Assembly (NCBI RefSeq): GCF_018118585.1
Contig: NZ_CP069421.1
Span: forward strand, 496,001-560,000
DNA from: Aristaeella lactis
GTDB lineage: Bacteria > Bacillota > Clostridia > Christensenellales > Aristaeellaceae
Length of the DNA stretch: 64,000 bases
Reading direction: 5' to 3'
Below, piece by piece: positions 10,200 to 61,230 of this stretch. Every line of letters begins with the position of its first letter. Position 1 is the stretch's first letter. Below the pieces are notes generated by a model that ran no database searches, had not been told where the DNA came from, and worked only from the letters and a program-made list of their open reading frames with translations. Made by a program: the position numbers and the translations under genes.

Positions 10200-10320
10200 T
10201 CGATGCGTTCAGGTAGGAGGCTGTGTTCAGGTAGGAGGCTGTGTTCAGGTAGGAGGTAGGAAGTAGGAGGTAGGAGGTTTTACTTAAAACTTAAAAATGA
10301 AGACTTAAAAATGAATAATG
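10200..10320. repeat. GTAGGAGG tandem repeat and A-rich repeat tract
   Basis: Three near-identical copies of CAGGTAGGAGGCTGTGTT, then GTAGGAGGTAGGAAGTAGGAGGTAGGAGG (by position 10245-10278), then ACTTAAAACTTAAAAATG repeats. It separates the polymerase and YolD-like genes. A shorter GTAGGAGG tract recurs near 12099-12115. Confidence 0.7.
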
Positions 10321-10374
10321 GCGGAGGAATGACTACGTCATTTTTTGAATTTAACAACCGCCTGCGGACGGGAA

Positions 10375-10495
10375 AAGGCATAAATGCCTTTAATGATATG
10401 CTGCCGGGGCAGCATGATATATTTGCCTTTGGCAAATATGATATATTGGCTTGCGGCCAATATGATATGTCCGACTGCGTCGGACGTGATAGTTA
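10375..10495. repeat. Hairpin array, ATGATAT-linker variant
   Basis: Five palindromes in a row with unrelated stems: AAAGGCATAAATGCCTTT, GCTGCCGGGGCAGC, ATTTGCCTTTGGCAAAT, ATTGGCTTGCGGCCAAT and GTCCGACTGCGTCGGAC. They are separated by a constant ATGATAT and end in GTGATAGTTACTAG, which contains the stop codon of the minus-strand polymerase. It matches the six GTGAAAT arrays in design but has its own linker. It lies at the 3' side of the polymerase gene. Confidence 0.85.
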
Positions 10496-12064
10496 CTAGG
10501 CGCGGTGACCACCGACCTGGCCGTTGCGTTTGATGGTCATGGCGCCTTCCTCCAGGTTCATGCCTTTGAGCATGGCGTTTTTGCCGAAGCGTTCCTGAAT
10601 ATCCAGGGCAGCCTCCTGCAGGCGCTTTTCCTTTGCGTCCGCGGCGGCTTCCTCCTCCTTTTGGCGGGCCAGGGTCTCATAATCCGTGAAGAGGTCCAGC
10701 TGCAGGGGAGCTTCCTCCGGTATATCATCCTCGGGAATCAGACCGACGGCGACCACATAGGCGCGGCGGATCAGCAGATCCGGATCAACGATCCGGTCAT
10801 AAAGCTCCATCATCGCGTCTGAAATACGGCGGGTGCTGCTGGTCCAGCGATCCAGGTTTCCGGTGCCGTGAGCGTGCTTCGGAATGATGCGGCCGTAGGG
10901 ATCCGCGGAGATGGCGCCGGTATAGATCCTTCCGGTGGAGGCCACGCGAAAGACTGAATCCCGAAGGGAACGTCCCTGGACTTCCACAGCCAGGCTTTCC
11001 CGGTCGTAGCAGACGGTGAGCTCGATCTTTTTGGTGACCAGTTTCTTTTTCACCAGGTCAAGGGTCAGCAGGTCTGTCATCTCCCGGATGATCAGGCGGC
11101 CTTTCCGGGCATCACAGGCCTCGGAAAGTACCTGGCCGCTGCTGAGACTGTTGGATATGGGACGATAGGTTTTGATGTCTGAAATCCGGGCAGGCTCCCA
11201 GCCCCAGGCATGATCAATGAGCAACTCCGCGTTGATGCCCAGCGCCTTGTAAAGCAGATCTTCATTGGTCAGGCTAAGGCGGGCGATATCTCCCATGGTA
11301 TAGCAGCCCAGCTTTTCCAGGCGGGCAGCGATTCCGAACCCCACACGCCAGAAATCCTTCAGGGGACGGTGGCACCAGAGAAGTTCCCGGTAGGTCTGTT
11401 CATTCAGTTCCGCGATGCGGACACCGTCCTGGTCCGCGGGAACCCGCTTGGCCACAATGTCCATGGCGATTTTCGCCAGGTACATATTGGTTCCTATGCC
11501 GGCGGTGGCGGTAATCCCGGTGTTGTAAAGCACGTCCCGGATCATGGTCATGGCGAGCTCATGGGCGGTCATGCCGTAGGTTTTCAGATAGCCGGTGACA
11601 TCCATGAAGCATTCGTCCACGGAATAGACATGGATATCTTCATCACTGACATATTTCATGTAGATGGAAAAGACTTTGGTGCTGATCCGCTCATAAAGCT
11701 TCATCCGCGGCCGGGCAATAATATAATCCAGCTCCAGGGACGGATCCGCCGCCAGCTGACGCGCATCGGCGGAGCGGACGGAGAAACCGTATTTCCCGTC
11801 CGGCCCACGGACAGCCTTGCCCAGGCGGATGGCATTGCGCAGCCGTTCCGCATTGACCTCTTTAACCCGCTGGATGACTTCAAACAGGCGGGCACGGCCG
11901 GCGATCCCGTAAGCCTTGAGACTGGGAGAGACGGCCAGGCAGATGGTTTTCTCTGTCCGGGTCGCGTCAGCCACAATAAGATTAACGGAAAGCGCGTCAA
12001 GACCACGGTCCGCACACTCCACGGAAGCGTAGAAACTTTTGAGGTCGATGGCGATGTAAGTCAT
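10496..12064 (-). CDS. Y-family DNA polymerase (UmuC/UvrX-like)
   Basis: A 522-residue translesion polymerase. The first catalytic aspartate is D6 in YIAIDLKSFYASVE and the second carboxylate pair is in YSVDECFMDVT. Thumb (helix-hairpin-helix) and little-finger regions follow. It is longer than DinB (about 350-400), closer to UmuC/UvrX/ImpB-MucB types, and has a charged C-terminal tail from about 465. Flanking small genes at 12143 and 9726 make up a cassette often seen with these polymerases. There is no strong ribosome site before ATG 12064, but the catalytic residues at the N-terminus fix the start. No LexA-type operator was recognised. Confidence 0.92.
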   Translation of the reverse strand: MTYIAIDLKSFYASVECADRGLDALSVNLIVADATRTEKTICLAVSPSLKAYGIAGRARLFEVIQRVKEVNAERLRNAIRLGKAVRGPDGKYGFSVRSADARQLAADPSLELDYIIARPRMKLYERISTKVFSIYMKYVSDEDIHVYSVDECFMDVTGYLKTYGMTAHELAMTMIRDVLYNTGITATAGIGTNMYLAKIAMDIVAKRVPADQDGVRIAELNEQTYRELLWCHRPLKDFWRVGFGIAARLEKLGCYTMGDIARLSLTNEDLLYKALGINAELLIDHAWGWEPARISDIKTYRPISNSLSSGQVLSEACDARKGRLIIREMTDLLTLDLVKKKLVTKKIELTVCYDRESLAVEVQGRSLRDSVFRVASTGRIYTGAISADPYGRIIPKHAHGTGNLDRWTSSTRRISDAMMELYDRIVDPDLLIRRAYVVAVGLIPEDDIPEEAPLQLDLFTDYETLARQKEEEAAADAKEKRLQEAALDIQERFGKNAMLKGMNLEEGAMTIKRNGQVGGHRA

Positions 12065-14263: not shown

Positions 14264-15877
<1,614 letters not shown>

Positions 15878-20544: not shown

Positions 20545-20768
20545 AGACATCCTGGGGTTCGCGACAGCTTTTCGGTTTTCCCCACATTTCATAAAATGGA
20601 GCCCGGGTCCAAAGGACGATATGCCATGCCCCCGTCTTGTACGCCAGGGGACGGCAAAAGCGTTCGGCAGGGCACCAGCCTGCTTTACAGAGCGGGTGAA
20701 AAAACGAAGGCATCGGCTCCCCGGGGGTTGGGAAAAAACCTTTCGCAGTTGCGGAAGGTTTTTTCAGT
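20545..20768 (+). ncRNA. ssrS: Structured non-coding RNA, 6S RNA candidate
   Basis: About 220 bases run from a near-consensus promoter to a strong terminator (AAAACCTTTCGCA/TGCGGAAGGTTTT, 20733-20766) without a plausible reading frame. The two halves can pair into a long rod: CCTGGGG (20551-20557) with CCCCGGG near 20720, TTCG/CGAA and TTTTC/GAAAA further in, then a large internal region, and an apical stem TGCC..CCCC/GGGG..GGCA around 20622-20658. A rod with an internal bubble plus a strong promoter fits 6S RNA, which binds sigma-A RNA polymerase. The SRP and tmRNA hallmarks are absent. ncRNA status is likely; the 6S identity is tentative. Confidence 0.6.
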
Positions 20769-20892
20769 GAAATATTGAGCAGCTATGCTGCTCAATGTGA
20801 AATATTCGGCTTACGCCGAATGTGAAATATCGGTCTGCGACCGATGTGAAATATGAGCCATAGACTGAGGTCTATGGCTCATGTGATATAAT
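20764..20892. repeat. GTGAAAT hairpin array (ncRNA 3' side), ending in a promoter
   Basis: Begins two bases after the ncRNA terminator stem. Four palindromes, TGAGCAGC-TAT-GCTGCTCA, TCGGC-TTAC-GCCGA, CGGTC-TGC-GACCG and GAGCCATAGAC-TGAG-GTCTATGGCTC, are framed by AT...AT and separated by GTGAAAT. The last linker is replaced by TGTGATATAATG, a perfect extended -10. Confidence 0.9.
20884..20892 (+). promoter_or_regulatory. Extended -10 promoter at the array end
   Basis: TGATATAAT, a perfect extended -10. A terminator lies only about 20-50 bases downstream, so it would make a very short RNA or act as a dead-end promoter. An identical element ends the array at 34.4 kb upstream of folT. Confidence 0.6.
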
Positions 20893-32122: not shown

Positions 32123-33045
32123 GTGAACCGCTCCTGAAAGTGGAAAACCTGAAACAGCATTTCAGGATCTCCCGTAACTATACTGTGAAAGCCGTAAACG
32201 GCGTATCCTTTGAGATCTATCCCGGAGAGACCTACGGACTGGTGGGGGAATCCGGCTCCGGAAAAACCACCATCGGCCGCAGCGTTATCCGGCTGTATAA
32301 TCCGACAGAAGGAAAGATCATCTTTAACGGGATGGATATTACCGGCAGGCTGGAAGGGAAGATCCGGGAAAACCTGCGGAAAAACATGCAGATGATCTTC
32401 CAGGATCCCATGGCGTCCCTGAATCCCCGGAAAAAGGTTGCGGACATCATCGGTGAGGGACTGGACATCCATCATATGGCTTCGTCGAAGGAAGAACGGG
32501 CGGAGCAGATCAGCGCCATGCTGAAAAAGGTCGGACTGTCACCGGAACACGCGGAACGCTATCCGCACCAGTTTTCCGGCGGCCAAAGGCAGCGGGTCGG
32601 CATTGCCCGGGCACTGATCATGAACCCGAAGCTGATCATCGCGGATGAGTGTATCTCCGCCCTGGACGTGTCCATCCAGGCCCAGGTGGTCAACCTGATG
32701 AAGGATATCCAGGATGAGACATCCTGCGCCTATCTGTTTATTGCCCATGATCTGAGCATGGTCAAGTATATATCAGACCGGATCGGTGTGCTGCATCTCG
32801 GATACCTTGTGGAAGCGGGGACCAAGGAAGAAATCTTCTCCAACCCGGTCCACCCGTACACGAAGTCGCTGCTGTCCGCCATCCCGCATCCGAATCCGGA
32901 AGCGGAAAAGCGGCGGAAATCCATTGCTTACGACTATGCCTCATCCGGTATCGATTATGCCAAAGGAACGGAACATGTGGTTTCCGGAACACACACTGTC
33001 CTTGCGACAGAAGATGAATTCGACCGGTGGGTGAACAGGCAGTAA
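32119..33045 (+). CDS. oppF: Oligopeptide ABC transporter ATPase OppF
   Basis: A 308-residue ATPase, the second subunit of the OppDF pair: Walker [10 protein letters not shown], signature FSGGQRQR, Walker [14 protein letters not shown]-loop AHDLSMVKY. In Walker B the usual DEP is DEC, a common natural variant at that place being P, so this is slightly unusual. The oligo_HPY tail is present ([12 protein letters not shown]). It is the last gene of the opp operon and ends before a strong terminator. Confidence 0.95.
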
Positions 33046-33051
33046 AACGGA

Positions 33052-33083
33052 TAAGGGTTCCCTGTCGGGAACCCTTGTTTTTC
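33052..33083 (+). terminator. Rho-independent terminator of the opp operon
   Basis: AAGGGTTCCC/GGGAACCCTT stem with TGTC loop, then GTTTTTC. Confidence 0.9.
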
Positions 33084-33107
33084 GCTTGTTCCCAAAGTCC
33101 CAGAAGG

Positions 33108-33136
33108 TTGACACATACGTACGCACGTGTTAAGAT
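33108..33136 (+). promoter_or_regulatory. Sigma-A promoter of asd
   Basis: TTGACA at 33108-33113, 17-base spacer, TAAGAT at 33131-33136. The spacer holds the palindrome ACGTACGCACGT, a possible operator. The transcript leader is about 45 bases. Confidence 0.8.
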
Positions 33137-33188
33137 TCACAGGAACAACGGGCGGAGCCCGGTTTTTTACTACATGGAGGGTGCTGCA

Positions 33189-34289
33189 ATGACTCAGTAT
33201 CGCGTCGGTATCATCGGTGCCACCGGAATGGTGGGACAGCGTTTCATTACCCTGCTGAAGGACCATCCCTGGTTCAAAGTGACCTGCCTGGCGGCTTCTG
33301 CCCGCAGCGCCGGTAAGAAATACAAGGATGCAGTGGGAGAACGCTGGGCTTTTGACTGGCCGATCCCGGATTATGCCGCGGATATGACCATTGTGGACGC
33401 TGCGGATATCGATGCCGTCGGCGAACTGGTTGACTTCTGCTTCTGCGCCGTGGACATGAAGAAGGACGAAGTCCGCGCCCTGGAAGAAAATTACGCAAAG
33501 CATGAAATTCCGATCATCAGCAACAACAGTGCCTGCCGTGGGATTGAAGACGTTCCCATGGTAGTGCCGGAGATCAATGCCTCCCACTTGGCTGTGATCG
33601 ATACCCAGCGGAAGCGCCTGGGAAGCAAGTACGGCTTTATCGCCGTTAAACCCAACTGCTCCATCCAGAGCTATGTGCCTGCCCTGACCCCCCTGCTGGA
33701 CTTTGAGCCCACCCAGGTCAGCGTATGCACCTATCAGGCGATCAGCGGCGCCGGCAAGACCTTCAAGAGCTGGCCGGAGATGGTGGATAACGTCATCCCC
33801 TATATTGGCGGGGAAGACGAGAAGAGCGAAAACGAGCCCCTGAAGCTGTGGGGTACCGTGGAAGACAAGGGCAACGGCCCGGTGATCGTGAACGCAGCGG
33901 AGCCTGTGATCAGCGCCCAGTGCCTGCGCGTTGCCTGCAGCGACGGTCATATGGCTGCTGTTTCCGTCAGCTTCCGCAAGAAGGTTACCAAAGAACAGAT
34001 CCTGGAGCGGTGGGCGAACTTTGAGACAGAAGCCCAGCGGCTGGAGCTGCCGAACGCTCCCAAGCCATTCCTTCAGTACTTTGAGGATCCGTCCCGTCCC
34101 CAGACCCGTCTGGACCGGGATTTCCAGAACGGCTTCGGCGTCAGCATCGGCCGTCTGCGTGAAGACAAGATCTTCGACTGGAAGTTTGTGTGCCTGAGCC
34201 ACAACACGATCCGCGGCGCTGCCGGCGGCGGTATGCTGACTGCGGAACTGCTGTGCAGGAAAGGAATCATTGTTGCGAAGCAAAAATGA
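33189..34289 (+). CDS. asd: Aspartate-semialdehyde dehydrogenase, archaeal/fungal-type
   Basis: A 366-residue enzyme of the lysine/threonine/methionine pathway. NADP-binding [10 protein letters not shown] is at residues 10-19, the catalytic cysteine is C157 in KPNCSIQ and the histidine is in CSDGHMAAV. Length and the NCSIQ motif fit the archaeal/fungal-like branch rather than the E. coli branch. ATG 33189 follows GGAGGGTGCTGCA; upstream in-frame starts lie before the promoter. The gene's 3' end forms half of the first hairpin of a palindrome array. Confidence 0.95.
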
Positions 34290-34410
34290 TTCCAGTGAAA
34301 TATTGAACGGCGAAGCCGTTCAATGTGAAATATCCGACTGACGTCGGATGTGAAATATTTGGCTGAAGCCAAATGTGAAATATTCCGCATTCGCGGAATG
34401 TGATATAATG
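34263..34410. repeat. GTGAAAT hairpin array (asd 3' side), ending in the folT promoter
   Basis: The first hairpin, GGAATCATT/AATGATTCC, contains the asd stop codon. Then TGAACGGC-GAA-GCCGTTCA, CCGAC-TGAC-GTCGG, TTGGC-TGAA-GCCAA and TCCGC-ATTC-GCGGA follow, each framed by AT...AT and separated by GTGAAAT. The array closes with TGTGATATAATG, which is the only promoter before the THF riboswitch and folT. Confidence 0.92.
34401..34409 (+). promoter_or_regulatory. Extended -10 promoter of folT, formed by the array end
   Basis: Perfect TGATATAAT, placed about 70 bases upstream of the THF riboswitch. No good -35 is present; the position where a -35 would lie is inside the last array palindromes. 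Confidence 0.65.
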
Positions 34411-34478
34411 TTTTCGCCTGGGTTCCTGTGACGGGCTGGAAAGCCCGGAACAGTCAGGATATGCAAAACGATTCGTAA

Positions 34479-34580
34479 AGGCAGAGTAGCGTTTTCCGCG
34501 TAAAGTGTTCATGAACGGGGAGTTGTCATGAAACGAAACGGCAAATGCCGTGCGGTGGAGGATGCGCATCCCGCTGCTTT
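34479..34580 (+). ncRNA. Tetrahydrofolate (THF) riboswitch
   Basis: The segment AGAGTAGCGTTTTCCGCGT (34483-34501), then AAGTG, GGGGAGTTGTCATGAAACGAA, GTGCGGTGGAGGATGC and a closing CATCCCGCTGC match the THF riboswitch core (AGAGTAG...CGCG...AAGTG...ACGAA...GCGGTG...GGATGC). GCAG near 34481 pairs with CTGC at 34574 to close P1. It sits in front of a folate-type ECF S component, the expected target. Downstream, AAAGCCTC (34588-34595) can pair with GGAGGCTTT (34632-34640) and so hide the folT ribosome site or form a terminator with the T run, giving a clear off state. Confidence 0.88.
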
Positions 34581-38889: not shown

Positions 38890-38997
38890 GTGAAATATTC
38901 GACTTCGTCAAATGTGAAATGTTGACTTCGTCAACGTGAAATATTGAACAGCAATGCTGTTCAATGTGAAATATCCGGCTGCCGCCGGATGTGATGA
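38890..38997. repeat. GTGAAAT hairpin array (murI 3' side)
   Basis: Palindromes TTCGAC-TTC-GTCAAA (one mismatch), GTTGAC-TTC-GTCAAC, TTGAACAGC-AAT-GCTGTTCAA and CCGGC-TGCC-GCCGG, separated by GTGAAAT and ending in GTGATGATTAC. The second palindrome is framed by GT...AC instead of AT...AT, which shows that the constant part is exactly GTGAAAT. The rest of the 375-base gap holds the fusA-like promoter. Confidence 0.9.
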
Positions 38998-39128: not shown

Positions 39129-39213
39129 CCCGTTTAGCATTTGATTCCCGCTCTTCGCGAATTCGGAGTGCAGGATGATCATCGTTTAATTAAATCAAGG
39201 AGGAATGACAACT

Positions 39214-41301
39214 ATGGCTGAATTCGCAACCAGTAACATTCGTAACGTTGCCTTCATGGGGCATGGCAGCGAGGGCAAGACCACGCTGACCGAGGCGATG
39301 CTCTTCGCTGCCGGCATGATTGACCGTCAGGGTAAAGTGGAGGACGGTACCACAGTATCTGACTTTGACCCGGAAGAGAAAAAGCGCGGTTTTTCCATCA
39401 GCGCTTCCTATGCACCCATTCCCTGGAATGGCAAAGTTATCAATGTGATCGACGTTCCCGGATATTTTGATTTCATCGGCGAACTGATGGGACCCCTGCG
39501 CGTGATCGAGACCGCGGTTATCGTGGTCGGCGGCGTGAACGGACTCAGCGTCGGCGCTGAGAAAGCCTGGGATTACGCGGGTGCCCATAACCTGGGCCGT
39601 ATGTTCATCGTGAACCAGATGGATCGTGAACATGCCAATTTTGAAAAAGTGACTGCTCAGCTTCGTGAAAAGTACGGCTCCAGCGTGGTGCCGATCCTGC
39701 TGCCCCTCGGACAGGGTGCCAGCTTCCGCGGTGTTGTGAACGTCCTGGAAAAGAAAGCCTATGAAGGCGCCTACAAGAAGAGCCTGGAAGTTCCGATGCC
39801 CGCCGAACTGGAAGCGGAAGTCAACGAAGCTTTTGAATATCTGACCGAACAGGCCGCGGCCGCGGATGACGATCTGATGATGAAGTACCTGGAAGGCGAA
39901 GAACTGACCTATGACGAAATCATGGCCGGTTTCCGCAAGGGCATGAAGGACGGCAGCATCGTTCCCGTTGTGGCCTGCTCCGCCGTGACCGGCGTGGGTA
40001 TTGCCCGTACGCTGGACCTGATGGCCAAATACCTGCCTTCTCCCGCACATGAAGGCCTGTTCCAGACCGGAAAGAACCCGAAGACCGGTGAAGAGATCAA
40101 GCGTGTCTGTAAGGACGAGGAACCCTTCTCCGCCCTGGTGTTCAAGACCATTGCCGACCCGTTCGTCGGTAAGCTGAGCCTGTTCCGGATCTTCTCCGGT
40201 ATGCTCACTTCCTCTACCCAGCTGTATAACGCCAACAAGGAAAAGACTGAAAAAGCCGGCGGTATGTTCACCCTGAAGGGCAACAAGCAGACGAACGTTG
40301 ACAAGCTTCATGCCGGTGACCTGGGCGCCCTGGCGAAGCTGCAGATCACCTCTACCGGTGATACCCTGTGCGACCCGAACAATCCGATCATCTATCCCCC
40401 GATCGAGTTCCCGGCTCCCTGCATCTCCAAGGCTGTGTTTGCCGCGAAGCAGGGCGAAGAAGACAAGGTCTTCAGCGGCCTGAACCGTCTGGCGGAAGAA
40501 GATCCTTCCATCAGGATTGAAAAGAACGTCGAGACTACCGAAACCGAACTGAGCGGCCAGGGTGAAATGCATCTGGACGTGATCAAAAACAAGCTGGCTT
40601 CCAAGTTCGGCGCCAACGCGGTGCTGCAGGATCCCAAGATCCCGTACCGTGAAACTATCCGCAAGACCGTTAAGGTCCAGGGCCGCCATAAGAAGCAGAC
40701 CGGCGGTCACGGCCAGTTCGGCGACGTATGGATCGAGTTCAGCCCCATCCTGGACAGCGACGCGGACTTCGAGTTTGAAGACGCGGTTGTCGGCGGCGTG
40801 GTGCCGAGAAACTTCATCCCCAGCGTTGAAAAGGGCCTGCGCGAGAACATCGTGAAGGGCGTCCTGGCCGGCTATCCGATGGTTCACCTCCATGCGAAGC
40901 TGTACGACGGATCCTACCATCCGGTCGACTCTTCCGAAATGGCCTTCAAGACCGCTGCCCGTATCGCCTACAAGAAGGGCTGTATGGAAGCGAGCCCCGT
41001 CCTGCTGGAGCCGATCATGCACGTTGAAGTGCTGGTTCCCAACGAGTACATGGGCGATATCATGGGCGACATGAACAAGCGCCGCGGCCGCATCATGGGT
41101 ATGAACCAGGTGAACGGCATGCAGCAGCTGGAAGCGGAAGCGCCCCTGGCTGAAATGTTCAAGTACGCCACCGACCTGCGCAGCATGACGCAGGCGAGAG
41201 GCTCCTTCTCCATGAAGTTTGAGCGCTACGAGGAAGTTCCCCAGGTCGAAGCTCAGAAGATCATTGCCAACGCGAAGATCGAAGAGGACGAGGAAGAATA
41301 A
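39214..41301 (+). CDS. EF-G-like translation GTPase (EF-G paralogue)
   Basis: A 695-residue five-domain GTPase of the EF-G family. The P-loop is GHGSEGKT (16-23), switch I has KKRGFSI, G3 is DVPGYFDF (80-87) and G4 is NQMD. Canonical EF-G has D-T-P-G-H-V-D-F and NKMD; here the catalytic histidine is replaced by Y84. Such changes mark the EF-G2-like branch of uncertain function, not the main translocase. Strongly biased codon use suggests high expression, so whether it is the only EF-G of the cell should not be assumed either way. AAGGAGG at 39197-39203 points to ATG 39214, not ATG 39205. Confidence 0.88.
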   Translation: MAEFATSNIRNVAFMGHGSEGKTTLTEAMLFAAGMIDRQGKVEDGTTVSDFDPEEKKRGFSISASYAPIPWNGKVINVIDVPGYFDFIGELMGPLRVIETAVIVVGGVNGLSVGAEKAWDYAGAHNLGRMFIVNQMDREHANFEKVTAQLREKYGSSVVPILLPLGQGASFRGVVNVLEKKAYEGAYKKSLEVPMPAELEAEVNEAFEYLTEQAAAADDDLMMKYLEGEELTYDEIMAGFRKGMKDGSIVPVVACSAVTGVGIARTLDLMAKYLPSPAHEGLFQTGKNPKTGEEIKRVCKDEEPFSALVFKTIADPFVGKLSLFRIFSGMLTSSTQLYNANKEKTEKAGGMFTLKGNKQTNVDKLHAGDLGALAKLQITSTGDTLCDPNNPIIYPPIEFPAPCISKAVFAAKQGEEDKVFSGLNRLAEEDPSIRIEKNVETTETELSGQGEMHLDVIKNKLASKFGANAVLQDPKIPYRETIRKTVKVQGRHKKQTGGHGQFGDVWIEFSPILDSDADFEFEDAVVGGVVPRNFIPSVEKGLRENIVKGVLAGYPMVHLHAKLYDGSYHPVDSSEMAFKTAARIAYKKGCMEASPVLLEPIMHVEVLVPNEYMGDIMGDMNKRRGRIMGMNQVNGMQQLEAEAPLAEMFKYATDLRSMTQARGSFSMKFERYEEVPQVEAQKIIANAKIEEDEEE

Positions 41302-41360: not shown

Positions 41361-41515
41361 CAATGAAATATTGAGCAGCAAAGCTGCTCAATGTGAAATA
41401 TCGGCCGACAAATCGGCCGATGTGAAATATTTGCCTTCGGCAAATGTGAAATATTCGGCTGCCGCCGAATGTGTGATTTACTGTGCTTCGCACGGGATAT
41501 TTGCCTACGCGAACG
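41361..41515. repeat. GTGAAAT hairpin array (EF-G-like 3' side) with shared tail
   Basis: Palindromes TTGAGCAGC-AAA-GCTGCTCAA, CGGCCGA-CAAA-TCGGCCG, TTTGCC-TTC-GGCAAA and TTCGGC-TGCC-GCCGAA, separated by GTGAAAT. The end is ATGTGTGATTTACTGTGC then TTCGCACGGGATATTTGC, nearly identical to the tail at 61523-61558. A further imperfect inverted repeat (GGGACGG...CCGTCCC, 41519-41568) follows. Confidence 0.9.
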
Positions 41516-60500: not shown

Positions 60501-61142
60501 ATGTTTATCCAGCATCCCGGCCACGCGGAATTCCTGATCGAGAATGAGAACGGAGTCCGTATCGTTACAGATCCCTATGATGCCCGCTGCGGTTATCCGC
60601 TTTATAAAACAGCAGCAGATATTGCCCTGGTTTCCCATCATCACCATGATCATGACGCGGTGGAAAACCTGACGGGGAAACCCAGGATCATAGACACGGA
60701 CGGTGTATTTCGTCCGGAACCGGACGTGAAGGTGACCGCTATCCGCGCTTTTCATGATGACGCGGGCGGAAGCAAAAGGGGAGAGACCCTGTTGTTCCTG
60801 ATCGAAACGGAAGGACTGCGGATTGTTCACCTGGGCGACCTGGGATGCGAGCTGAACCAGGATCAGCTGGCGACACTGAAAAATCCGGATGTGCTGATGA
60901 TTCCTGTGGGCGGGTTCTATACGATTGACGCTGAAATGGCCCAAAAGACGGCAGAACAGCTGAACGCCCGCATTATCCTGCCGATGCACTATAAAACGGA
61001 ATATAACAAAGACTGGCCGATCTCAGGTCCTGAAGCGTTTACAGCCCTGTATGATCCCGGTGTGATCTGTGAGGGAGCGGAAGCACTGCGAATCGCGAAG
61101 AAGGATATGGAATGCCAGCCGAGGATCGTTTTGTTCAAATAA
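60501..61142 (+). CDS. MBL-fold metal-dependent hydrolase (UlaG/UPF0173-like)
   Basis: A 213-residue metallo-beta-lactamase-fold enzyme. Metal ligands are in SHHHHDHDAVE (H-x-H-x-D-H), FHDDAGG, HLGDLG and PMHYKT, the pattern of small UPF0173/UlaG-type hydrolases. The substrate is unknown. It ends the four-gene unit begun at 58562. Its last codons and stop form one arm of a perfect inverted repeat (GGATCGTTTTGTT/AACAAAACGATCC, 61123-61154), the first hairpin of an array. Confidence 0.9.
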   Translation: MFIQHPGHAEFLIENENGVRIVTDPYDARCGYPLYKTAADIALVSHHHHDHDAVENLTGKPRIIDTDGVFRPEPDVKVTAIRAFHDDAGGSKRGETLLFLIETEGLRIVHLGDLGCELNQDQLATLKNPDVLMIPVGGFYTIDAEMAQKTAEQLNARIILPMHYKTEYNKDWPISGPEAFTALYDPGVICEGAEALRIAKKDMECQPRIVLFK

Positions 61143-61230
61143 ACAAAACGATCCAATGAAATATTTCAAAGCAATGTAATTGCTTTGAAATGTGAAATAT
61201 CGGCCGATGAATCGGCCGATGGGAAATATT
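61123..61230. repeat. GTGAAAT hairpin array (MBL gene 3' side), interrupted
   Basis: A first hairpin with the stop codon, then TTTCAAAGCAAT-GTA-ATTGCTTTGAAA and CGGCCGAT-GA-ATCGGCCG, with linkers AATGAAAT and GTGAAAT. A third unit (GGGAAATATTTGC) begins but has no second arm; unrelated GC-rich sequence follows. Confidence 0.88.

What the first reader, a model, noticed from the sequence alone, without database searches (positions are those of the whole stretch)
34263..34410. A family of palindrome arrays with a constant GTGAAAT linker
Six sites (15735, 20764, 34263, 38890, 41361, 61123) carry 2-4 consecutive palindromes whose stems differ completely in sequence, while the linker GTGAAAT is constant; a seventh (10375) has the linker ATGATAT. 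Stems are about 5-13 bp with mostly 2-5-nt loops, and a framing AT...AT extends most stems. At 38917 the frame is GT...AC, so only the 7-nt linker is fixed. It is the inverse of a REP element: structure and linker are conserved, stem sequence is not. As RNA these would be strings of hairpins spaced by an identical single strand, suitable for a protein that reads the linker; as DNA, repeated cruciforms. I know of no named element with this design.
Basis: seen in the sequence. Interest (0 to 1): 0.85.

Follow-up and report, generated by a model that had tools for sequence, protein, structure and literature searches.

The report
Four-hairpin DNA elements behind genes
A group of gut bacteria places, just behind genes, a fixed DNA element of four short hairpins whose stems can have almost any sequence while the seven bases between them stay the same; it looks built to fold as DNA rather than RNA, and we found no described element like it.

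Summary
GTGAAAT-type linkers between tandem palindromes are massively over-represented in this genome (110 ATGTGAAATAT against 1 reversed control). The arrays are one element: normally four hairpins, RTGAAAT before each, then a GTGAYAGTTACT-like tail, median 25 nt behind a sense stop codon. The linker recurs with unrelated stems in 13 families of the order; the same three-linker pattern gave no such array in 397 other sampled genomes of the phylum.

Stems are nearly perfect palindromes with no G-U preference. They are conserved between close orthologues, mutually dissimilar inside an array, and often swapped wholesale between species. Hairpin tips match exceptionally stable DNA loops, c(GNA)g and c(GNNA)g, almost only on the ATTTCAC strand and chiefly in short stems; terminators rarely have them. 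Arrays lie on the GC-skew-positive strand (56 of 59; 40 of 43). The nearest mechanism is the supercoil-extruded promoter hairpin of phage N4.

It fails the defining features of REP/BIME; Y1-type transposases and RVT_1 proteins are not required. The binding factor and the function remain unknown.

The parts
34263..34293 (+). HP0: gene-derived first hairpin; its 3' arm holds the stop codon of the asd gene (33027-34289)
   Evidence: G000/G004 comparison
34295..34399 (+). four-unit array: GTGAAAT + hairpins of 23, 18, 18 and 18 nt
   Evidence: folds of 34263-34420
34400..34410 (+). tail GTGATATAATG
10393..10485 (+). four-unit array with linker ATGATAT
10486..10497 (+). tail GTGATAGTTACT
15727..15760 (+). 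HP0 over the stop codon of the IMP dehydrogenase gene (14288-15745)
15762..15870 (+). four-unit array (ATGAAAT, then 3 x GTGAAAT)
20732..20765 (+). HP0 that is also a U-tract terminator-like hairpin
20767..20882 (+). four-unit array
38890..38990 (+). four-unit array that starts GGTAAGTGAAAT; unit 2 has the frame GT...AC
41363..41470 (+). four-unit array behind the elongation factor G gene (39205-41301)
61123..61154 (+). HP0 over the stop codon of the 60501-61142 gene
61156..61220 (+). two units of a broken array (next linker GGGAAAT, then other sequence)

Best explanation
Each array is one element of fixed design that works as folded DNA. SHOWN: normally four near-perfect palindromes (stems 4-17 bp, most often 7), each preceded by RTGAAAT, behind gene 3' ends and, in this genus, on the GC-skew-positive strand. 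What is conserved is the linker, the tip, self-complementarity and, within the genus, an outer A-T pair. INFERRED: under negative supercoiling, or when single-stranded at the fork, the strand that reads ATTTCAC folds into a row of mini-hairpins. Short ones are held by the exceptionally stable c(GNA)g or c(GNNA)g tips; long ones need no special tip. Stem sequence is free because the stem only has to exist, and it must differ from its neighbours so that each hairpin folds on its own and the array is not lost by recombination. [quoted passage not shown] INFERRED with least support: an unidentified factor binds the hairpins together with the constant 7-nt linker, and the element acts at the ends of leading-strand transcription units (torsion-gated landing site, block, or recombination substrate).
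For: Fixed size: of 216 arrays, single units included, 106 have four units and 1 has five; none above four in 56 arrays outside the genus. Linker: position 1 only G or A (242/35) with all letters allowed; in the genus positions 3-4 showed no variant, position 2 four, position 7 one; positions 5 or 6 are T in two linker families. Palindromy: 4581 Watson-Crick pairs, 8 G-T, 21 A-C and 11 other mismatches; terminator-like hairpins of the same genomes mismatch in 184 of 2684 pairs. Tips: tri- and tetraloops match stable DNA motifs on the ATTTCAC strand in 192 of 353 against 25 on the other strand (20 of these are symmetric motifs); random 58 and 47 of 1765; outside the genus 49 of 70 against 2. 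Trade-off with length: cGN(N)Ag tips on the ATTTCAC strand in 143 of 255 stems of 7 bp or less, 3 of 56 of 10 bp or more (p 1.5e-13); terminators 4 of 241 on that strand and 12 on the other, background hairpins 5 and 3 of 107. Constraint: in 68 homologous units of G001/G022/G035, 509 stem pairs show 7 one-sided and 2 two-sided changes, linkers 4 of 476 bases, loops 13 of 238. Mutual dissimilarity: shared runs of 6 or more in 0 of 552 unit pairs against 11.95 expected, 0 of 500 permutations. Strand: 56 of 59 and 40 of 43 on the skew-positive strand. N4 precedent: passages of PMC4496689; stable d(GNA) triloops with a C-G closing pair: passages of PMC5815330.
Against: No binding protein was found and no experiment exists. 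The computed DNA stability difference between strands is small on average (-6.47 against -6.35 kcal/mol), the RNA model also slightly prefers the ATTTCAC strand (-8.90 against -8.74), and only about half of the short hairpins have the special tip. Sense position shortly behind genes (49 of 56 arrays with a called upstream gene), including behind tRNA genes, is what a 3'-end RNA element would also show. Linker position 1 being only A or G would suit pairing with the linker's last U in RNA. The strand bias may partly reflect which genes lie on the leading strand; the G035 background comes from crude longest-ORF calls. In other families several gaps carry arrays on both strands. Arrays are often replaced wholesale between species with 93-97% identical flanks, which a required function does not predict. 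Most genus members read lack the focal array. Orthologues from related genomes are counted, so the tallies are not independent.
Confidence: 0.5

Rival explanations
1. RNA 3'-end element. The array is transcribed, its hairpins block 3'-to-5' exonucleases and short spacers deny them a landing place, so it defines and stabilises mRNA 3' ends, as REP hairpins are held to do.
For: Sense orientation, median 25 nt behind the stop codon, 49 of 56; an array behind tRNA genes; strong RNA fold z -9.44, in which two linker bases extend each stem and leave GAA unpaired (the DNA fold has z -8.99); linker position 1 only A or G; REP precedent for transcript stabilisation (passage of PMC12306157).
Against: G-T no commoner than A-C in stems, though the same is true of the terminator-like control; sense-strand loops are TN(N)C, and the stable motif lies on the complementary strand; arrays on the skew-negative strand are 3 of 59 and 3 of 43 in G000 and G035; some arrays start only after a U-tract terminator.
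Confidence: 0.2
2. Mobile single-strand DNA element. The hairpins are substrates of a structure-recognising nuclease or recombinase (HUH or integron-like) acting on single-stranded lagging-strand DNA; the linker is its tag; arrays behind genes are insertions.
For: Presence/absence and wholesale replacement at one site; replication-strand bias; dispersed version with 52 pattern matches in G172; TnpAREP proteins use a tag, loop bases and, in the two perfect-palindrome systems studied, a mismatch-free stem, while swapping a whole stem was only moderately harmful in one (passages of PMC8266576).
Against: Y1_Tnp (PF01797) is present in 7 of 14 array-rich and 11 of 20 array-poor genomes, RVT_1 (PF00078) in 4 of 14 and 9 of 20; arrays in this genome are not copies of each other (638 of 703 pairs of four-unit arrays share no stem in register); no clean empty site or target duplication was seen in the pairs inspected.
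Confidence: 0.18
3. Mutational by-product. Template switching or snap-back synthesis at the fork keeps making and re-perfecting palindromes; stable tips only reflect where a nascent strand folds back; there is no function.
For: HP0 contains the stop codon of the upstream gene in 12 of 26 strong cases, that is, one arm is an inverted copy of that gene's end; template switching can create and maintain hairpins (abstract of PMC8794818); strand bias and tip asymmetry could follow.
Against: Does not explain a constant linker across 13 families, the limit of four, or mutual dissimilarity of stems; between orthologues stems and linkers change far less than loops, with 2 two-sided changes in 509 pairs.
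Confidence: 0.12

Closest known systems
REP / BIME (GTAG- and CGTC-tagged palindromes; RAYT/REPtron)
   Same: High-copy extragenic hairpins, many downstream of coding regions, with a short constant tag beside the stem; in some TnpAREP systems the stem must be mismatch-free and loop bases matter (passages).
   Different: REP families are defined by a repeated stem sequence plus GTAG or CGTC; here stems are free and the tag is GTGAAAT on both sides of each hairpin, four hairpins in direct orientation; Y1-type proteins are not required.
Phage N4 virion RNA polymerase promoter hairpins
   Same: A small hairpin whose closing C-G pair and loop G and A are needed for extrusion, seen at sub-physiological superhelicity; non-conserved stem bases only have to pair (passages of PMC4496689). 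The 3-nt loop and 5-7 bp stem are recalled.
   Different: Single promoter hairpins of a phage with conserved contact bases; here chromosomal four-hairpin arrays behind genes, no polymerase known.
Integron attC sites
   Same: Folded DNA hairpins recognised by structure (abstract line of PMC11641012; sequence variability recalled).
   Different: No integron arrangement was noticed; attC sites and integrases were not searched for.
Intrinsic transcription terminators
   Same: Hairpins behind genes; HP0 sometimes is one.
   Different: No U-tract after array hairpins; mismatch rate and loop types differ.
Organellar double-hairpin / palindromic repeat elements
   Same: Dispersed hairpins between genes (listing and abstract lines only).
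   Different: Not bacterial; a constant linker with free stems is not mentioned in those abstract lines.

Membership tests
REP (GTAG or CGTC super-family) | palindrome sequence repeated many times in the genome | tested here: not met
   in this genome stems are not family copies: 638 of 703 pairs of four-unit arrays share no stem in register; a repeated-stem version exists in G172
REP (GTAG or CGTC super-family) | GTAG or CGTC tetranucleotide at one end of the hairpin | tested here: not met
   spacer census gives GTGAAAT and its variants; tag definition from PMC3733652 passages
REPtron / RAYT-mobilised element | a Y1-type transposase gene flanked by the repeats | tested here: inconclusive
   PF01797 present in G000, G001, G022, G035, G172, G121, G295 but not found in 7 of 14 array-rich genomes, some of them incomplete; flanking of those genes by arrays was not examined
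BIME | regularly spaced REPs in alternating orientation (abstract line of PMC2817692) | tested here: not met
   units are in direct orientation with like linkers
Retroelement-dependent array (RVT_1) | reverse transcriptase in array-rich genomes | tested here: not met
   no match in G000, G001, G022, G035, G165, G172, G178, G106, G123, G221, that is 10 of 14 array-rich genomes
Intrinsic terminator | U-tract directly behind the stem | tested here: not met
   a linker follows each array hairpin; a T-run of 4 or more stands just before the array in 5 of 49 G000 arrays, so HP0 is a terminator now and then
Known structured RNA (Rfam 15) | match above gathering score | tested here: not met
   only the THF riboswitch at 34480-34578 matched in the window
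Supercoil-extruded hairpin (N4 promoter type) | closing C-G and loop G..A on the folded strand | tested here: met
   met by about half of the short hairpins, on one strand; requirement
Supercoil-extruded hairpin (N4 promoter type) | extrusion at physiological superhelicity | not testable with these tools
   needs probing of supercoiled DNA
Integron attC | recognition by an IntI integrase | not tested
   no search made

The most novel reading that the evidence does not exclude
A cellular, order-wide class of torsion-gated DNA hairpin arrays: four strand-specific mini-hairpins, with free but mutually different stems and a fixed 7-nt linker, that fold out of the double helix behind leading-strand genes and are read as DNA shape by a dedicated factor. 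It would be a chromosomal counterpart of the extruded promoter hairpins of phage N4.
Probability: 0.3. Interest if true: 0.95.

Novelty: categorically new. Interest (0 to 1): 0.82.

Why it matters
It separates hairpin structure from hairpin sequence in a natural element: linker, tip, perfection and mutual difference of stems are kept, and the stem letters are let go. If the DNA reading holds, chromosomes of many gut bacteria carry arrays of DNA hairpins poised to extrude, and the question whether short cruciforms have a physiological role in cells becomes directly testable at dozens of defined sites. Searches by sequence similarity cannot see such elements, so other lineages with other linkers may hold more of them.

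Tried and rejected
Closing helix between the 5' flank and the tail: no clear excess over swapped pairs in the five genomes of the genus; 11-14 nt complementarity in a few arrays outside it, some of it due to the opposing array. Array as substitute for an intrinsic terminator: among genes that face a convergent gene or a gap of 100 nt or more, terminators stand behind 8 of 42 with an array and 70 of 280 without; not informative, and the gap classes are confounded by the array's own length. Mobile-element proteins as necessary partner: Y1_Tnp and RVT_1 do not track arrays. Clean empty site or target duplication: not seen in the pairs inspected; intergenic repeats of several kinds replace each other. 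Selection on total folding energy per array: the spread equals that of shuffled units (sd 8.43 against 8.04, sd 0.48). HP0 as a general part: strong in G000 (26 of 49) and G004 (6 of 7) but in only 7 of 35, 1 of 8 and 6 of 29 arrays of G001, G022 and G035. Covariance models, structure prediction, and viral or metagenome scans were not used.

Literature: ten searches showed no paper on such an element in their listings; subscription journals are mostly outside the library. Passages were read of PMC3733652, PMC8266576, PMC12306157, PMC5815330, PMC4496689 and PMC13155455; abstract and outline of PMC8794818 and PMC6060812; others were seen only in listings. The four tetraloop motifs used (cGNNAg, cGNABg, cCNNGg, gCNNGc) are recalled from the thermodynamic literature; only the d(GNA) family and its C-G closing pair were checked in a paper.

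Limits and rows dropped: one search left out 16 array pairs whose unit counts differ, 43 unit pairs of unequal length and 16 of under 75% identity before counting substitutions; pairs among three genomes are not independent, and the 2 two-sided changes come from non-orthologous replacements that passed the 75% limit. One search's printout was cut; only part of it was seen. The unit parsers need an RTG-like start after a hairpin and so undercount. Loci of this genome were chosen around linker matches, except the window and 3.081-3.320 Mb. Gene calls are my own codon-usage calls or longest ORFs. The terminator control counts pairs at the edge of the T-run, which may inflate its A-C class. The phylum scan tests one exact linker only; one genome there (G569) has palindromes of another design that contain the linker.

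Full report
1. What is there. The window lies at C1:496001-560000 of a 3.45 Mb genome in two contigs. The closest public records by the asd protein are mostly Clostridia genomes assembled from rumen and gut metagenomes; no tool names the source organism. Linker position 1 is G or A only (242 and 35); in the genus positions 3 and 4 showed no variant, and positions 5 or 6 are T in two alternative linker families, ATGATAT and ATGAATT, that are mostly used homogeneously within an array.

2. It is one element, not a loose array. Over sampled loci of five species of the genus, 106 arrays have four units, 22 three, 40 two, 47 are single and 1 has five. Four-unit arrays most often begin with ATGAAAT and continue with GTGAAAT three times (41 arrays), and commonly end in a tail like GTGATAGTTACT. 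Shorter arrays can arise by exact linker-to-linker deletion: in one orthologous pair with 98% and 91% identical flanks, one species has units 1 and 4 of the other's four (pair 21). In 56 arrays outside the genus none exceeds four (2 units 16, 3 units 25, 4 units 15, whose parser undercounts; in several of these a fourth hairpin is visible by eye).

3. Place. Of 56 G000 arrays with a called upstream neighbour, 49 follow a gene on the same strand; the median distance from the stop codon is 25 nt. In 26 of 49 G000 arrays of three or more units a strong extra hairpin, HP0, ends just before the first linker (0-3 nt in 23 of them), against 2 of 147 control positions; it is also common in G004 (6 of 7) but not in G001 (7 of 35), G022 (1 of 8) and G035 (6 of 29). 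The stop codon lies inside HP0 in 12 of those 26, so part of one arm is coding sequence and the other arm its inverted copy. In G000 and G004 the HP0 of asd carries Ile codon ATC or ATT with the matching change in the outer arm. In a G306 contig an array follows six tRNA genes and a U-tract hairpin.

4. Distribution. The asd-folT gap was read in 30 of the 41 genus members with a match: arrays in G000, G001, G004, G022 and G035, a single hairpin in G007, none seen in the printed stretch of the other 24. A three-linker pattern hits 37 of 396 genomes of the order, its reversed control 4; in my reading of the listed matches they are hairpin arrays in 13 families (f1, f5, f10, f12, f13, f14, f16, f19, f23, f24, f31, f32, f33). 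In the phylum sample 12 of 398 genomes match, and the matches of the 11 others are not such arrays. So the linker is conserved at the level of the order while stems are unrelated.

5. How it evolves. Between G001, G022 and G035, 68 homologous units show 7 one-sided and 2 two-sided changes in 509 stem pairs, 4 linker changes in 476 bases and 13 loop changes in 238. Between lineages the whole array, HP0 included, is often different although flanks are 93-97% identical. Within this genome, 638 of 703 pairs of four-unit arrays share no stem in register. Within one array stems avoid each other: identical stems 0 of 552 unit pairs against 338 of 22624 between arrays, and with position-preserving permutations shared runs of 6 or more are 0 against 11.95 expected, of 5 or more 14 against 35.4, pooled over G000, G001 and G035. 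In G172 of another family the same GTGAAAT-linked design of four hairpins is a dispersed repeat with 52 pattern matches; in the nine loci printed, one of them a repeat of another, stems are conserved with paired changes.

6. DNA or RNA. Stems hold 4581 Watson-Crick pairs with 8 G-T, 21 A-C and 11 other mismatches, so there is no sign of G-U tolerance; terminator-like hairpins of the same genomes have 52 G-T, 54 A-C and 78 others in 2684 pairs. The outer pair starts with A or G in 390 of 400 distinct hairpins, the loop is closed by C-G in 319, and it begins with T and ends with C in 183. Read on the complementary strand these tips are c(GNA)g and c(GNNA)g, which are exceptionally stable DNA loops (d(GNA) family and its C-G preference: passages of PMC5815330; tetraloop motifs recalled). 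Stable DNA motifs occur on that strand in 192 of 353 tri- and tetraloops, on the sense strand in 25, and in about 3% of random tips on either strand; outside the genus 49 of 70 against 2. They are concentrated in short stems, 143 of 255 at 7 bp or less against 3 of 56 at 10 bp or more, and are rare in terminators (4 of 241 on the corresponding strand, 12 on the other) and other perfect hairpins (5 and 3 of 107). Arrays lie on the GC-skew-positive strand, taken as the leading strand, in 56 of 59 cases in G000, where 63% of coding bases of the same loci do, and 40 of 43 in G035, against 54% by crude ORF calls; the exceptions cluster in one region of each genome. All this points to folding as DNA on the ATTTCAC strand.

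7. Mechanism. The nearest precedent is the N4 early promoter: its hairpins extrude at sub-physiological superhelicity in the presence of Mg, the loop-closing pair and the loop's G and A are required, and non-conserved stem bases only have to pair (passages of PMC4496689). By analogy a row of four such hairpins, separated by a constant 7-mer, could fold out behind transcribed genes and be bound by a factor that reads linker plus shape. What binds and what follows is not known; this step is inference. Results that cut the other way: sense position behind genes and behind tRNA genes, a linker base limited to purines as RNA pairing would want, a small mean energy difference, and arrays on both strands of one gap in other families.

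8. Known families. It does not meet the defining features of REP or BIME, has no Rfam match in the window, and neither Y1-type transposases nor RVT_1 reverse transcriptases are required. Ten library searches listed no description of it.

9. Verdict. Observation confirmed and extended; interpretation partly supported; DNA-level folding favoured at about one half; function open.

Noticed in passing
window 34480-34578: THF riboswitch (Rfam RF01831, 84.2 bits) before a folate-type ECF transporter gene; the focal array lies between asd and this riboswitch.
   Followed up: no
L305, L308, L311, L314, L317, L320, L323, L329, L332 (genome G172): A dispersed repeat with 52 pattern matches in the genome: four hairpins with GTGAAAT linkers whose stems are conserved between copies with paired changes.
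   Followed up: partly
L197, L211, L214, L218, L219: Some arrays have a tail complementary over 11-14 nt to the first linker and 5' arm, so HP1 and a closing helix would compete; in part this is the opposing array's linker.
   Followed up: partly
L139, L165, L214, L219, L304: Paired arrays on opposite strands a few tens of bases apart, in several cases with three units on one strand and four on the other.
   Followed up: no
L054 4595-5228; L059; L120; window 10300-10390: Several other intergenic repeats stand at sites that hold arrays in a relative, or beside arrays: runs like ACTTAAGACTTAAAAATGAATAATGG, GTGAAGAGTGAAGAGT tracts, TCCTTCGACTGCGCTC...CTCAGGATGACA elements.
   Followed up: no
L020, L022, L023 (G000 1.18-1.32 Mb) and L061 (G035 1.31-1.33 Mb): All sampled arrays against the replication-strand bias lie in one region in each genome, perhaps an inversion or a terminus effect.
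   Followed up: no
window 34263-34293; L014, L056, L124; L013, L018, L043: C-terminal residues of upstream proteins change with HP0; in L013, L018 and L043 HP0 lies inside the coding end and the first linker may supply the stop codon.
   Followed up: partly
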